Shown: piece by piece, positions 11,676 to 16,729 of the stretch
How positions within the stretch are numbered: the stretch's first letter is position 1
How the letters are laid out: every line of letters begins with the position of its first letter
Assembly (NCBI GenBank): GCA_016845065.1
Contig: JAERTG010000032.1
Coordinates: 1-64,000 of the forward strand
Length of the DNA: 64,000 nucleotides
Source of the DNA: Fidelibacterota bacterium
GTDB lineage: Bacteria > Fidelibacterota > UBA8477 > JABMPR01
Direction of reading: 5' to 3'
Notes under the pieces: generated by a model
Database searches by the model: none
What the model was told of the DNA's origin: nothing
The model's input: only the letters and a program-made list of their open reading frames with translations
Program-made: the position numbers and the translations under genes

Positions 11676-12509
11676 ATGAAATCATATTCAAATGTTGCAT
11701 CATTTCTGCTTATTCTCAACTTAAGCTTGTTTTCCTTCTCAACTCTACAAGGGGAAATTCTACACCTGAAGACACCTTCAATTGCATTATCTGACAGTAA
11801 TCGGGTGATCGTTGCCACTCCTACTCAGTTCGATCCTCAGAAAAAAGGTGGATATCCTTTTATTGTCATGCTCCATGGATGGAGTGGCGATGAAACCCAA
11901 TGGAAAGATGATTCAGATTTGCAGATGTTGTGCGATACCTATAATGTACTATTGGTGCTACCAGATGGTGGATATGACGGCTGGTGGGTCGATTCTGAGG
12001 TCAGTCCTGGGCGAAACTATGATACCCACATTCACCAGGAGATTAAAATCTGGATGGTGGAAAATTTTAATGGCTCCATGAATCCTATGAACCACGGTGC
12101 AATGGGTCTCAGCATGGGTGGTTTCGGTGCCATATCACAGGCCTTAAGATATCCAGCTGATTATGCTGCTGCTGCCAGTTTGAGTGGAGTCATGGATGTT
12201 ACACGTCATACTGAAAACTGGCACTTAACCGGTGCACTGGGATTGTATGTTGATGATCCTAATCGTTGGAAGAGAAACAACCCCCTCCACATGGCCATGA
12301 AAAAAGCACCTGTTATAAGCCCTAAACTGCTGTTGATATGTGGACGAGATGATTTCACCTTCCTGGAAAATCAAGAGATGGCCAAAATGTTGGGTGACAA
12401 AGGATATAAGATTGTCTTTAGGGAAGAATCAGGGACACATTCCCATGCTTTTTGGAAAACTCATGCAGAGTCGGCCATTAAGTTTATCGTGTCGCACTTC
12501 AACAAATAG
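11676..12509 (+). CDS. Exported esterase-D-like alpha/beta hydrolase
   Basis: A 277-aa serine esterase of the esterase D/PHB-depolymerase-like group. After a signal peptide (FLLILNLSLFSFSTLQGE), it shows the oxyanion-hole region VMLHGWSGDETQW and the nucleophile elbow GLSMGGFGAI. A catalytic Asp sits in CGRDDF and a catalytic His in SGTHSHAFW. All triad residues are present. It probably acts in the periplasm or outside the cell on acyl esters; feruloyl, S-formylglutathione-like or mycolyl-type substrates cannot be distinguished. It is convergent with the selenoprotein gene, 13 bases from its end, and stands alone on its strand. Confidence 0.86.
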   Translation: MKSYSNVASFLLILNLSLFSFSTLQGEILHLKTPSIALSDSNRVIVATPTQFDPQKKGGYPFIVMLHGWSGDETQWKDDSDLQMLCDTYNVLLVLPDGGYDGWWVDSEVSPGRNYDTHIHQEIKIWMVENFNGSMNPMNHGAMGLSMGGFGAISQALRYPADYAAAASLSGVMDVTRHTENWHLTGALGLYVDDPNRWKRNNPLHMAMKKAPVISPKLLLICGRDDFTFLENQEMAKMLGDKGYKIVFREESGTHSHAFWKTHAESAIKFIVSHFNK

Positions 12510-12522
12510 ATGGAACTAACAA

Positions 12523-14535
12523 CTAGCGTAGCTTGACAATCTTCTGAATATGTCGCTCTTGTTGGGCAGTCATATAGAGAAAGTAAACCCCCGAGCTTAA
12601 ATTTTCACCCCTGAGGTGAAAATCATAATCTCCACTAGTTAGCGTGCGATCTTTAATAAATTCATGAACTTTACGTCCACGGATATCAAATAATCCCAGT
12701 GAAATGATGCCTTCCTCATGGATAACAATCTTGATCCTTGCATCTGGATTAAATGGATTTGGAGACACTGTGATGAGATCGAGCTGTTCAGGGATTTCAA
12801 AAGAGTGTGGTTCGATGTCAACTGGTGAGATGTGTAACAATTCCTCAATAATTGCTATCATTGTACCGGGCTCGTATTCAGTCTTCGCCATGTGAACAAT
12901 ACCATTTTCATCCAGGATAAAATCGCGGGGGTAGGGTGAAGCAGACCCAGGAATATTATATTGCCCATACACTCCCTGATTATCATGTAACACAGGGAAG
13001 GTAATCCCCTGATCTGCAACAAAGGCTGCTATCTCTGGAATTGGTTCATTGGTGATTCCAACAACCTGTAAACCTGTATCCTGATATTCCTGCCAAATTG
13101 AAACCTCTATATCCGAAAACTCCGGAGCGCAGACAGGTCACCAGGTGGTAAAGAAAGCGAGCACCACAGGTTGACCTAAAAGTTCATTCGTACTAATGGA
13201 ACCCAAATCATTCACCACATCTAATTCAAATTCCGGGGCCATATCCCCTACCATAGGACCAGAAGGGTAGTTCCCGGTGATTTTCACCTCAACCTCCTGC
13301 TCATCAGGATCATTGGTAATTATAGTAAGGTCCTCTGTCCAATAACCTCCACCAGGTTGATAATGAATTGGAAATGTTAGCGAACTGTCTGGCAATAAAA
13401 TGCCGGGAGCTAAGCCAACTTCAAAATCAGAATCATCAATTTGTGCGTCATAGATTTCCAGGGGAAGTTGACCATTATTAACAATGGTTACCGGCAGCGT
13501 ATACGACTCGATCTGCTCCACTCTGGGAAATTCTACCTTCCTTGTATTTAGATCTATATCGGCTTCCTGTATCTCCTCATACTGAAAGACCACCAATTCT
13601 TCCCACTCTGCAGAGAAAATGATATCATCCAGCATTGCGAGCGCCATCACGCGGCCTCCTGTGTCTTTATAGCCGACCAACATCATACCTTGAATATCAA
13701 AACTCAATACCTCCACATCATCCCAGTCAGAAACTGCAATTCGATTCGAATTGGCTGAAACCCTGGAAGCATATCCGCTGGTATTATAATTATCAACTAA
13801 TGTGGGATTTTGCGGATCGCTAACATCTATCATATCAACACCTGCAGCACCTACAGCAACAAACAGATAGTCGTCTACTATAGAGACATCCTTTGCAGTT
13901 CCACTTGTGGGGAGGCCACCTATTAGTACAGGGTTAGAAGGATTGCGAACTGAGGCAATTTTGATACCGGCGCTGCCATCAGCAATATAGAGGAGAGTAT
14001 CTGCTATCATACTAGCCCAGGCATTGTGGGTTAAAAAATTGCTCACCACATGGATATATGGAGATTGCGAGATATCCACGAGCTCCACGCCCCGGCGGTG
14101 TTTTGATAGAAAGAGGGTGACCCCATCTGTCTCAGCATGTTCATATCGTTGATCAATCTCATCGTCTCCTGTATAAACTGTAGCCAGTAGGGGATCTGCA
14201 GGATTTGAGATATTTATGACATGCACTCCACATTCACGACCTGCACCATAGGCAAAATCGCCACTAACTGTCCAGGCATAAATTCGGCCCCAATCACAAC
14301 CTCCAGCACGGTAAGACGATACAACATCCGGATTGCTTGGATCTGAAATATCTACAATATTCAAACCCCCTAAACCGGCTGGAATGAATGCCAATTCATC
14401 CTCTATATAGACATCTAGCAATTCGAAATTATCCAGGCGAGACTGAGATAGGATACTCAAGTTCTTGGCATTTAGATGATATTGGGGAATAATCATCAAC
14501 CCAATTAGCAGTAGCTGGTAAATTTGATTCCTCAT
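12523..14535 (-). CDS. Secreted propeller/redoxin protein with in-frame TGA (probable selenoprotein)
   Basis: One reading frame of 670 codons runs from 14535 to 12523, broken only by TGA at 13138-13140. Domains in order: a signal peptide (YQLLLIGLMIIPQYHLNA); LVIVD propeller repeats such as LNIVDISDPSNPDVV and VDMIDVSDPQNPTLV (about 30-320); an immunoglobulin-like region (about 335-425); and a TlpA/redoxin domain from MVGDMAPEFEL. The sequence then reads VVLAFFTTW, TGA, PVCAPEFSD. The TGA therefore replaces the first Cys of the usual WCxxC motif, giving Sec466-Pro-Val-Cys469. The redoxin fold continues (GLQVVGITNEP, ITFPVLHDNQGVYGQYNIPG), followed by a sorting tail SPNPFNPDARI ending IQKIVKLR. 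A random nonsense mutation or error at exactly this codon is much less likely. Probably an extracellular or surface thiol/selenol oxidoreductase. Confidence 0.85.
13104..13137 (-). promoter_or_regulatory. Candidate bacterial SECIS hairpin
   Basis: Directly downstream of the UGA (13140-13138, reading minus), UCCG (13126-13123) pairs with CGGA (13115-13112) around a seven-base loop GAGUUUU. The loop starts with G, 15 bases after the UGA. An outer helix CCU-gu-CU (13137-13131) pairs with AGAGG (13108-13104). Bacterial SECIS elements have a short apical stem with a G at the start of the loop, about 16-37 bases from the UGA, so this is close to expectation. It was folded by eye. Confidence 0.5.
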
Positions 14536-14859: not shown

Positions 14860-15738
14860 TCAGGGATAATTCGAGCGAGCAGTATCATATCTTGAGATTT
14901 CCATAGCACCAATTTCATCGCTTATGATTTGACTCAGAACTGGATCCTTCAATATTTGATCTATCTCTAAAACAGATCCATTCAGTATACACTTGTTCAA
15001 TATGAACCTAATTCCATGGCTATAGTCTGTATACCAGTTTATGTGCCCCGTGTAGAGCGGTTGAATGGGTTCACCATTTTGATAGTGCCAACCATAGATG
15101 ATCACCTTATCAGGCTTGGTAGCAACCTGATTTGACAATATCACATCCTTCTTGTGACCACTGATTAAACTTCCCAACGGGTAATCACTGGCAAAGTTAT
15201 CTCTACTAAGTTCTAGCATCGAGTTATGCTCTTGAAATACCTTTACTGTAACCATTTCCGGGCTTGGAGGAATAGGTTGGGGTGGCAGCTTGACCTCAGA
15301 GGCTTTCCAGATGAGATCAACCATTTTCCGTGTCGGCAAGATACCACCCATATGATCTACGGCTTTTTGGGCTAGCATCGGTGTCATAGGCACCAGAAAA
15401 TGATCAGAATCTGAACCTATGGAGAGGTAATCTGGCATGACAAAGAAGGTCAGACTGTATTCTATATTCTCAACAGTTAAACTGGTTTCAATTTCAACCA
15501 ATTCTCTGAGAAAATCAGGAATATTACCATTTATAACTTCACCCAGGATGGCTTCCTCCCTTTGAAACAACTCCATGGATTCGATGGATCGTGCGAAGAC
15601 CGTCCCGGAAAGTGCATCTTGCTTACGTTGGGTAATTTTGGGTTTAAAGTTTTTTTGACCTGAATGAATCAAATTATCAGCTCCATAAACAGTTGAGATG
15701 ATCAACAACAGCAACAAAGTGAACACCTTTGAATTCAT
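14860..15738 (-). CDS. Conserved secreted protein with YGW/YSHG motifs
   Basis: An exported protein of about 292 aa when started at MNSKVFTLLLLLIISTVYGADN, where the signal peptide is N-terminal; in-frame starts further upstream (up to 15837) would bury it. The C-terminal region has KVIIYGWHYQNGEPIQPLYTGH and WYTDYSHGIRFI. I recall this pattern from uncharacterised secreted bacterial proteins, with a conserved Trp, His and YSHG block that could form an active site. The middle holds FFVMPDYLSIGSDSDHFLVPM. No function can be assigned. It diverges from the hydrolase at 15884. Confidence 0.68.
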   Translation of the reverse strand: MNSKVFTLLLLLIISTVYGADNLIHSGQKNFKPKITQRKQDALSGTVFARSIESMELFQREEAILGEVINGNIPDFLRELVEIETSLTVENIEYSLTFFVMPDYLSIGSDSDHFLVPMTPMLAQKAVDHMGGILPTRKMVDLIWKASEVKLPPQPIPPSPEMVTVKVFQEHNSMLELSRDNFASDYPLGSLISGHKKDVILSNQVATKPDKVIIYGWHYQNGEPIQPLYTGHINWYTDYSHGIRFILNKCILNGSVLEIDQILKDPVLSQIISDEIGAMEISRYDTARSNYP

Positions 15739-15883
15739 TAATTGGTTTCCCGTCATTATCATAGAATTACATCCAAAACAATTTTTAACAACCGGTTCAA
15801 CTGTGCATTTGAATATAAGGTTATGAAACCAAAACAAGTGTCTTTTCCCTTCCCCATCAATGCATTCGCCTTATTTTGTTTGA

Positions 15884-16729
15884 ATGCAGATACCATTTCC
15901 ACCTGAACCCACCATGAATCGCTGGGGCAATTCCCAAGGAGAAGTGCTCTTCTTTCTGCATGCAAATAGCTATTCATCAAGAATGTATGAACATTTTTTT
16001 GAACCGTTAAAAAGTGATTTTGATATCTGGGCGCCTGATCTACCTGGTCATGGAGACTCCAGGTGGAATGGTCGAGTTGAAGCCTGGATAAATTTAGCGA
16101 ACTATTATAGCGCTTATTTAGATAAAAATCCTCCTGGAAAACCAATGGTCGCCATGGGACATTCAATTGGTGGTATCGTCATCATGTTGATGGCAATTCG
16201 AAGACCACAGTGGTTTCATAAAATCATCCTACTGGATCCCGTTATGCTTCCTAAACGGATATTGGCTGCCATGCGGGTTTTGAGACTACTCTCACTAACC
16301 CACCTCATTCCTCTGACACGTGCAGCTGCTCGACGGAGAAATATTTTTGAATCTAGGTCTAAAGCATTGGAGCACTTTTCAAGAAAGGTTATTTTTTCTA
16401 GATGGGAGCCACGATTCCTGCAGGCCTATGTAGATACCTGTCTCCGAGATAATGGTCAGAATTCTTTGCAGCTATCCTGCGCCCCTCAATTGGAATCCAG
16501 TATTTATCAATCAATTCCCTTAAACGTTTGGTCTCTTCCAAAAAAGTTACCTGTTCCAGCACTTTTCATCATTGGTGAAAAATCGGATACAGTGAATCAG
16601 CGTGGTTTTAACCGGCTCAAACGCTCCAAGGGGAATCATATTGTGAAAAGCCTTGTTGCAGGGCATCTTTTCCCCTTTGAAAAACCTGCAGAGAGTATGG
16701 CTATTATTAAGGATTATCTGGCCACATGA
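15884..16729 (+). CDS. Alpha/beta hydrolase
   Basis: A 281-aa alpha/beta-hydrolase. It shows LFFLHANSYSSRMYEHFFEPL with the oxyanion region, DLPGHGDSRW, nucleophile elbow MGHSIGGIV (Ser), acid site IIGEKSDTV and terminal His in VAGHLFPFEKP. There is no signal peptide, so it is cytoplasmic. Its stop overlaps the start of the TsaC gene by four bases (ATGA), suggesting co-transcription. The substrate is not evident; it belongs to the broad esterase/epoxide-hydrolase-like group. The start may be the Met ten codons later (MNRWGNS). Confidence 0.85.
   Translation: MQIPFPPEPTMNRWGNSQGEVLFFLHANSYSSRMYEHFFEPLKSDFDIWAPDLPGHGDSRWNGRVEAWINLANYYSAYLDKNPPGKPMVAMGHSIGGIVIMLMAIRRPQWFHKIILLDPVMLPKRILAAMRVLRLLSLTHLIPLTRAAARRRNIFESRSKALEHFSRKVIFSRWEPRFLQAYVDTCLRDNGQNSLQLSCAPQLESSIYQSIPLNVWSLPKKLPVPALFIIGEKSDTVNQRGFNRLKRSKGNHIVKSLVAGHLFPFEKPAESMAIIKDYLAT

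What the first reader, a model, noticed from the sequence alone, without database searches (positions are those of the whole stretch)
12523..14535. Probable selenoprotein: TGA replaces the first Cys of a thioredoxin-type CxxC in a secreted propeller protein
The frame is continuous for 670 codons except one TGA at 13138-13140. It falls exactly where the redoxin motif needs Cys: VVLAFFTTW, TGA, PVC. The redoxin fold and a sorting tail follow in frame (all 48 codons after the TGA up to the next annotated start are open). Sec in place of the first Cys of a thioredoxin-like motif is a known selenoprotein pattern. A combined LVIVD propeller, Ig-like region, Sec-redoxin and type-A sorting tail would be an extracellular selenoenzyme that I do not recognise as described. 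An ordinary gene caller would report two truncated genes.
Basis: partly seen in the sequence, partly recalled or inferred. Interest (0 to 1): 0.9.

Follow-up and report, generated by a model that had tools for sequence, protein, structure and literature searches.

The report
Surface-exported selenocysteine redoxin with propeller
A gene of an uncultured bacterium that looks broken by a stop codon in fact almost certainly encodes an exported enzyme carrying the rare amino acid selenocysteine, and relatives in many other bacteria keep the same codon and the RNA hairpin that marks it.

Summary
On the minus strand (14535 to 12523) a 670-codon frame is open except for one TGA (13140-13138) in the redoxin motif VVLAFFTTW-U-PVC. 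The genome has selA, selB, selC and a TGA-containing selD. A phylum search (245 genomes) found the gene in 48 genomes (49 loci): 48 of 49 have TGA at this codon; one is truncated before the redoxin. Four members outside the phylum also have TGA; no full-length Cys version was found. Three codons after the TGA (CCG, GAG, TCG) are identical in 48 of 48 loci, although these residues use other codons elsewhere. They form a hairpin, UCCGG-AGUUN-UCGGA, loop starting at the 17th base after UGA. Three of four outside members keep it by paired changes; the fourth, a frameshifted copy, has one mismatch. This fits a bacterial SECIS element.

The protein is a new family: a secreted LVIVD propeller, Ig-like domain and Sec-redoxin with a type IX tail, or dockerin-like repeats in some lineages. 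Sec-redoxins are known; I found no description of this architecture. Most likely it is a cell-surface Sec/Cys thiol-disulfide oxidoreductase. Sec insertion is near certain by comparative evidence; export and activity are inferred; the substrate is unknown.

The parts
12523..14535 (-). Whole gene: 670-residue secreted LVIVD propeller / Ig-like / Sec-redoxin / type A sorting tail protein
   Evidence: homologues
13138..13140 (-). UGA codon 466 read as selenocysteine, first residue of the U-P-V-C redox motif
   Evidence: TGA in 48 of 49 loci of the phylum; in the 4 members seen outside it
13112..13126 (-). SECIS hairpin: 5-bp stem UCCGG/UCGGA with loop AGUUU (13121-13117), loop beginning at the 17th base after UGA
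   Evidence: codon invariance; consensus structure; pair counts; geometry test
13129..13131 (-). Cys469, second (resolving) cysteine of the UxxC motif
   Evidence: Cys in 48 of 48 loci; resolving role inferred
12928..12930 (-). Pro536 of SPYPRDF, probable cis-proline of the thioredoxin fold (role recalled from TlpA/ResA proteins)
   Evidence: column invariant in the 19-row alignment A2
14470..14535 (-). Signal peptide, about residues 1-22, judged by eye
   Evidence: sequence; not predicted with a tool
13576..14463 (-). Beta-propeller of LVIVD repeats, about residues 25-320
   Evidence: PF08309; AlphaFold model mostly above 70 pLDDT here, top listed Foldseek hits are propeller proteins
13270..13560 (-). 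Ig-like domain, residues 326-422
   Evidence: PF22544 E 8.7e-6, 26.3 bits against a cut-off of 25.5
12841..13251 (-). Redoxin domain (AhpC-TSA/TlpA/ResA type), residues 429-565
   Evidence: PF00578, PF08534; closest solved sequences 2ls5, 3or5, ResA
12532..12768 (-). Type A sorting tail of the type IX secretion system, residues 590-668
   Evidence: PF18962, TIGR04183; SprA translocon gene in the genome

Best explanation
This is one intact selenoprotein gene. The ribosome inserts selenocysteine at UGA466 because SelB carrying Sec-tRNA(Sec) recognises the hairpin that starts 12 bases downstream (loop at base 17). The finished protein leaves the cytoplasm by its signal peptide and crosses the outer membrane through the type IX system by its tail. 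On the surface its Sec466/Cys469 pair does thiol/selenol-disulfide (or peroxide) chemistry, while the propeller and Ig-like domain place it or bind a partner. Shown by computation: the conserved TGA, the Sec machinery, selection on the RNA hairpin with paired changes outside the phylum, and the domains and tail. Inferred: actual Sec insertion, surface location, redox activity and its direction. The substrate is not known. A TlpA-like redoxin that also carries a type IX tail is a likely redox partner.
For: selC (72 bits, cut-off 47; ARAGORN tRNA-SeC), selB, selA and selD in the genome. TGA at the codon in 48 of 49 loci from 48 genomes of 245 searched, and in the 4 members seen outside the phylum. 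Of 64 columns with a shared residue (Met and Trp left out), only TGA466, CCG471, GAG472 and TCG474 are codon-invariant (47 of 47 genes); the next is 0.87, median 0.52. Hairpin on 51 sequences: 99.6% of 250 cells paired, 4 of 5 pairs with changes on both sides, covariation score reached by 0 of 500 shuffles. Exact geometry in 48 of 48 loci against 18 of 29817 other codons of the same genes, though this rule was taken from the family itself. 40 of the 48 holder genomes have a clear SelB; five more have SelB pieces below the cut-off and one has selA only. A nearby TlpA-like gene interchanges C and U.
Against: No protein-level proof of Sec. The hairpin of the window sequence alone is no more stable than shuffles (z 0.19), and 4 of 48 loci have a 51-nt folding energy above -7.5 kcal/mol. 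Inside the phylum the stem hardly varies (47 of 48 identical; L096 has one unpaired end), so all paired changes come from three sequences outside it. A fourth outside sequence, the frameshifted L137, has one mismatch in five pairs and was not in the alignment. Rfam finds nothing in the window at gathering thresholds. Two of the 48 genomes, G225 (86% complete) and G173 (65%), show neither selA nor SelB. Export and redox function rest on domain homology.
Confidence: 0.92

Rival explanations
1. A pseudogene or sequencing error: a Cys codon misread or mutated to TGA, leaving two truncated genes.
For: A normal gene caller reports two ORFs. The assembly is fragmented, 182 contigs. Some relatives are damaged: L085 truncated, L084 and L137 in two frames.
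Against: 47 other loci at 30-81% identity share the TGA. Downstream codons and an RNA hairpin are under selection. TGA is the only in-frame stop here.
Confidence: 0.01
2. The UGA is a programmed stop with two fates: the main product is the propeller plus Ig-like domain, and Sec insertion makes a minor long form only when selenium is plentiful.
For: UGA is a normal stop in this genome, so competition with termination is expected in general. One relative, L085, has a propeller-only ORF.
Against: The short form would lack redoxin and export tail. The redoxin is kept in 48 of 49 loci, and 45 of the 47 loci classed by a crude pattern have a type IX-like or dockerin-like end.
Confidence: 0.05
3. UGA is reassigned to another amino acid (for example Gly or Trp) in this lineage.
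For: The frame is open when TGA is read as a residue.
Against: TGA ends 17 of the 54 other long window ORFs, and the orthologues in G225 and G232 run to a TGA at the end of the aligned protein. Inside the matched span there is one TGA, at the redox position. Sec machinery is present.
Confidence: 0.005
4. The hairpin-like conservation reflects protein constraint, not RNA.
For: Pro471, Glu472 and Ser474 are identical in all 48 loci of the phylum.
Against: The codons themselves are invariant, while pooled usage elsewhere in these genes is CCG 21% of Pro, GAG 30% of Glu, TCG 10% of Ser. Outside the phylum Glu becomes Gln and Ser becomes Ala or Val with paired base changes.
Confidence: 0.01

Closest known systems
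Redoxin family and Prx-like thiol:disulfide oxidoreductase selenoproteins, UxxC (PF08534 / PF00578; Table 1 of PMC13188914)
   Same: Same fold, Sec as first residue of UxxC, bacterial SECIS downstream.
   Different: That table has no entry described with a propeller, Ig-like domain, type IX tail or dockerin beside this redoxin. Here no Cys full-length version was found among the genomes searched.
ResA / TlpA / DsbE (CcmG) thiol-disulfide oxidoreductases
   Same: Redoxin domain matches ResA (NF002854 1.4e-15; PDB ResA 3.7e-9); same spacing of the redox pair.
   Different: Below the cut-off of each redoxin family listed (57.6 bits against 170 for ResA); Sec instead of Cys; large N-terminal propeller; C-terminal export tail.
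Selenoprotein domain fusions of the GOS survey (PMC2398784, passages seen)
   Different: In the passages seen, the fused domains are not described as propellers; Unknown_3 has three conserved Cys including CxxC. Figure S1 was not readable here.
LVIVD / choice-of-anchor B surface propellers (PF08309, TIGR04312)
   Same: Same propeller repeats; LVIVD above its Pfam cut-off.
   Different: 31.7 bits against a cut-off of 100 for TIGR04312. Partial propeller matches without a redoxin are common in the phylum and outside.
Bacterial SECIS model (fig. 2 legend, PMC13188914)
   Same: 5-bp upper stem, 5-nt loop, G at the second loop position followed by U, 16-nt spacing, folding energy at or below -7.5 kcal/mol in 44 of 48 loci.
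   Different: Spacing is at the lower limit of 16-37; 4 of 48 loci miss the energy limit.

Membership tests
Bacterial selenoproteins (Sec at UGA) | In-frame UGA at a Sec/Cys position conserved among homologues | tested here: met
   48 of 49 loci and the 4 members seen outside the phylum; Cys in the nearest other redoxins
Bacterial selenoproteins (Sec at UGA) | SelA, SelB, SelD and tRNA-Sec in the genome | tested here: met
Bacterial selenoproteins (Sec at UGA) | SECIS hairpin just downstream of UGA | tested here: met
   one mismatch in L137 and one in L096
Bacterial selenoproteins (Sec at UGA) | Selenium or Sec detected in the protein | not testable with these tools
   needs mass spectrometry or 75Se labelling
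Redoxin / AhpC-TSA (TlpA-like) oxidoreductases | Profile match above curated cut-off with a redox pair | tested here: met
   PF00578 81.8 bits (cut-off 26), PF08534 59.1 (26.6); U466 and C469 in 48 of 48 loci
ResA / DsbE equivalogs | NCBIfam cut-off of those families | tested here: not met
   57.6 against 170 and 28.7 against 123.15 bits
Type IX secretion cargo, type A tail | C-terminal tail over cut-off and a translocon in the genome | tested here: met
   TIGR04183 31.5 (cut-off 23); SprA; secretion itself not tested
Choice-of-anchor B proteins (TIGR04312) | Curated cut-off | tested here: not met
   31.7 against 100 bits

The most novel reading that the evidence does not exclude
A previously undescribed family of outer-surface selenoenzymes in which Sec appears irreplaceable: no Cys orthologue was seen in holders from three bacterial phyla, and the export tag changes (type IX tail or dockerin-like repeats) while the Sec centre is kept. 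It would be the core of an extracellular redox module with a TlpA-like partner, DUF3179 and an outer-membrane-type protein, acting outside the cell on disulfides, peroxides or metal/selenium species.
Probability: 0.55. Interest if true: 0.75.

Novelty: new variant of a known kind. Interest (0 to 1): 0.62.

Why it matters
Almost all selenoproteins have many Cys homologues, and one main class of search relies on them (PMC12013277, passages). A family without any full-length Cys version seen so far is easily missed and is read by a normal gene caller as two short genes. If export is confirmed, it places Sec outside the cell in a phylum of uncultured bacteria, and makes it testable why a cell would pay for Sec there. 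The near-invariant hairpin, with paired changes in distant members, is a clean natural data set for how SelB of these lineages reads SECIS loops.

Tried and rejected
Rejected: sequencing error, pseudogene, UGA reassignment, and protein-level constraint as the cause of codon conservation (see rivals).

Led nowhere: folding energy of the single window sequence is uninformative. Rfam has no match in the window at gathering thresholds. The AlphaFold model from three sequences is poor over the redoxin (residues 410-598 under 50 pLDDT), so no active-site geometry is claimed; only the propeller part was informative, and its top listed Foldseek hits are generic WD40-type and designed propellers. A weak SBP56 selenium-binding-protein match (E 0.0068, below cut-off) was not pursued. 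One search aligned the wrong stretch of L029 and was not used. The direction of catalysis and the substrate could not be tested.

Not found in print. Full-text searches: Marinimicrobia + selenoprotein (2 papers; passages of PMC8318568 seen, the other by listing), LVIVD + selenocysteine (0), five selenoprotein terms with at least three required (11 listed; passages or sections of three read), Neomarinimicrobiota + selenocysteine (0), type IX secretion + selenoprotein (1, listing only), selenoprotein + beta-propeller + thioredoxin + fusion + bacteria + UGA (1, listing only), selenocysteine + T9SS (2, listings only), LVIVD repeat (5, listings only). Only open-licence papers are held, and supplements were not readable.

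Rows dropped before counts: one search left out L084 and L085; the tree left out L076, L084, L085, L086 and L089; L137 was found after the alignment and is reported apart.

Full report
What is there. The gene is on the minus strand, from ATG at 14535 to a TAG at 12523-12525. With TGA read as U it is 670 residues with one U at codon 466. Under table 11 it splits into ORFs 13138-14535 and 12523-12993. The protein begins with what looks like a signal peptide (by eye). It then has LVIVD propeller repeats, a HYDIN-type Ig-like domain, an AhpC-TSA/Redoxin domain and a type A sorting tail. The TGA stands in VVLAFFTTW-U-PVC, the first redox position of the redoxin. The closest solved sequences to the redoxin are thioredoxin-like proteins of the ResA and DsbE kind.

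Machinery. The window is part of a 4.05-Mb, 182-contig genome, 93% complete. It holds tRNA-Sec (72 bits against a cut-off of 47; ARAGORN agrees), selB (347.9 bits, cut-off 242.25), selA (517.7 bits) and selD (370.2 bits, itself with one TGA). TGA is also an ordinary stop: of 56 long window ORFs, 18 end in TGA, one of which is the first half of this gene. The genome has the type IX translocon SprA.

Homologues. A search of 245 genomes of the phylum with the whole protein (E up to 1e-30, at most four candidates scored per genome) found it in 48 genomes of 32 genera. I fetched all 49 loci (L029 was already held, and the window itself is one). 48 of 49 have TGA aligned to codon 466, in the motif U-P-[VA]-C-x-P-E-[FL]-S-D. 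The remaining one, L085, is an ORF that ends in the propeller with no redoxin after it. In L084 the gene lies in two frames, and the redoxin piece has the TGA. A profile search of 392 genomes (judging by handle numbers, the same 245 and 147 outside the phylum; three candidates scored in most genomes, E up to 1e-25) gave no full-length member without TGA. It added two genomes outside the phylum: G298 (L125, full length) and G361 (L126, propeller to redoxin; L127, matched over Ig-like domain and redoxin), all with TGA. A search of the 6 held genomes of G298's phylum added G392 (L137), in two frames, with TGA in UPVC. The nearest redoxins with Cys at this position are fusions to a glycosyl hydrolase family 1 domain (PF00232 in the one tested, L128) and stand-alone redoxins, with WCSVC, WCSIC or WCNPC.

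Sec machinery across holders. Of 245 genomes, 166 have SelB over the cut-off. Of the 48 holders, 40 have a clear SelB hit (best E at or below 1e-80, my count from the table). Of the other 8, five have SelB pieces below the cut-off (G062, G190, G162, G026, G189), four of these five with selA, and G239 has selA only. G225 (86% complete) and G173 (65%) show neither. G298 and G361 have both. tRNA-Sec was searched only in the window genome.

The RNA signal. In 47 genes (L084 left out) I compared codon choice in 64 columns where at least 42 sequences share the residue, Met and Trp excluded. Only TGA466, CCG471, GAG472 and TCG474 are invariant as codons; the next column reaches 0.87 and the median is 0.52. 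Elsewhere in the same genes CCG is 21% of Pro, GAG 30% of Glu and TCG 10% of Ser. Pro467, directly after the TGA, uses all four codons (19/11/9/9). The consensus fold is a 5-bp stem UCCGG/UCGGA with loop AGUUN, whose loop starts at the 17th base after UGA. That fits the bacterial SECIS model as given in PMC13188914 (outline, sections 5, 7 parts 1-2 of 3, and 9, and passages read). Inside the phylum 47 of 48 loci have exactly this stem, and L096 has one unpaired end. Three members outside the phylum carry UCCGC-AGUUG-GCGGA, UCCAC-AGUUG-GUGGA and GCUGC-AGGCU-GCAGC: both arms change together while the loop stays in place. The fourth, frameshifted L137, carries UCCCC-AGUUA-GCGGA, with one mismatch. 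On the 51 sequences without L137, 50 distinct, 99.6% of 250 cells pair. Four of five pairs have double-sided changes, the fifth never varies, and 0 of 500 shuffles reach the covariation score (six changed cells from three sequences, so few independent events). With my own geometry rule, taken from the family (stem of at least 4 bp, loop AG at base 17), 48 of 48 loci pass against 18 of 29817 other in-frame codons of these genes. A looser stem-loop rule (5 bp or more, 3 or more G-C, spacing 16-37, G in the first two loop bases) passes 48 of 48 against 2076 of 29817. Against this: folding energy of the window hairpin alone is not unusual (z 0.19), 4 of 48 loci miss the -7.5 kcal/mol limit, and Rfam reports nothing in the window at gathering thresholds.

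Tails, neighbours and tree. By a crude pattern on 47 loci, 32 ends carry a PN[PL]FN motif as in type IX tails, 13 are dockerin-like, and 2 are neither: L089, and L113 with an unassigned tail (L084 and L085 left out). Of those scanned with Pfam, the type IX tail is over cut-off in the window protein, L074 and L125, and Dockerin_1 in L114; for L104 Pfam lists no dockerin at E up to 0.001. The dockerin-like ends come from family codes f22 and f25. One f19 member inside the f22 clade (L074) has leucine-rich repeats and a type IX tail. In 11 of 49 loci a TlpA-like redoxin related to the L065 protein lies near the gene: seven have Cys and four (L092, L099, L100, L102) Sec at the same position, and those four have a hairpin with loop GG[TC]. 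Pfam was run on two of the 11: the type IX tail is over cut-off in L092 and below it in L029. In 10 loci a DUF3179-like protein is nearby (PF11376 in the one tested), and in several an outer-membrane-type protein with a CC motif, named from its look, without a Pfam match in the one tested. In the window genome the TlpA-like Sec protein lies elsewhere on the same contig. In the gene tree, rooted on L125, family codes f1, f22, f25 and f27 hold together (f22 with one f19 member inside), while f15, f17, f19 and f26 are split.

How it most likely works. Supported by computation: one gene, a Sec codon, a SECIS element under selection, the machinery, a redoxin with U and C redox residues, and export signals. 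Inferred: SelB recognises the hairpin and inserts Sec; the protein is exported and displayed on the cell surface; U466 attacks a disulfide or peroxide and C469 resolves it; the propeller binds a partner or polymer; the TlpA-like protein exchanges electrons with it. Substrate and direction are unknown.

What is known. Table 1 of PMC13188914 lists 119 prokaryotic selenoprotein families or subfamilies, among them UxxC Prx-like and Redoxin families and DUF3179, but none described with this architecture. The GOS paper (PMC2398784, passages only) reports redoxin-like fusions with other domains. PMC9312934, PMC8318568 and PMC12013277 were seen as passages. My literature searches found no description, within an open-licence library. 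I therefore file it as a new variant of a known kind: a selenoprotein redoxin in a new, probably surface-exported architecture, with no full-length Cys orthologue in the genomes searched.

Noticed in passing
L065 (G000:C32:131463-131819, outside the window): Second Sec-redoxin in the same genome: TlpA-like FFASW-U-GSC with what looks like a type IX tail and its own hairpin.
   Followed up: partly
L057 (G000:C9): Peroxiredoxin with TFVU and an adjacent rhodanese-like frame with IYU, each with one in-frame TGA followed by a hairpin. The rhodanese name is from the sequence, not scanned.
   Followed up: partly
L128, L129, L132, L133: Glycosyl hydrolase family 1 domain fused to a redoxin with WCSVC (PF00232 and PF08534 tested in L128; the others look alike); two copies in L129.
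   Followed up: partly
L068, L090, L091, L093, L094, L095, L096, L098, L103, L104: DUF3179-like protein near the Sec-propeller gene, in several loci with an outer-membrane-type protein that has a CC motif.
   Followed up: partly
L074: Family member with about 490 residues after the redoxin, including leucine-rich repeats and a type IX tail, nested in a dockerin-tailed clade.
   Followed up: no
L085 (G106): Truncated propeller-only member in a 95% complete genome that has SelB; no redoxin follows.
   Followed up: partly
L137 (G392) and L084 (G182): Family members lying in two reading frames; both redoxin pieces keep the TGA. L137 also has a mismatch in the hairpin.
   Followed up: partly
window 14860-15837 (-) and 15884-16729 (+): Unknown protein without a Pfam match and an alpha/beta hydrolase, both kept near the gene in the same-genus loci L087, L088, L089.
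   Followed up: no
window 11676-12509 (+): Putative esterase (PF00756) ending just beyond the gene's 3' end on the opposite strand.
   Followed up: no
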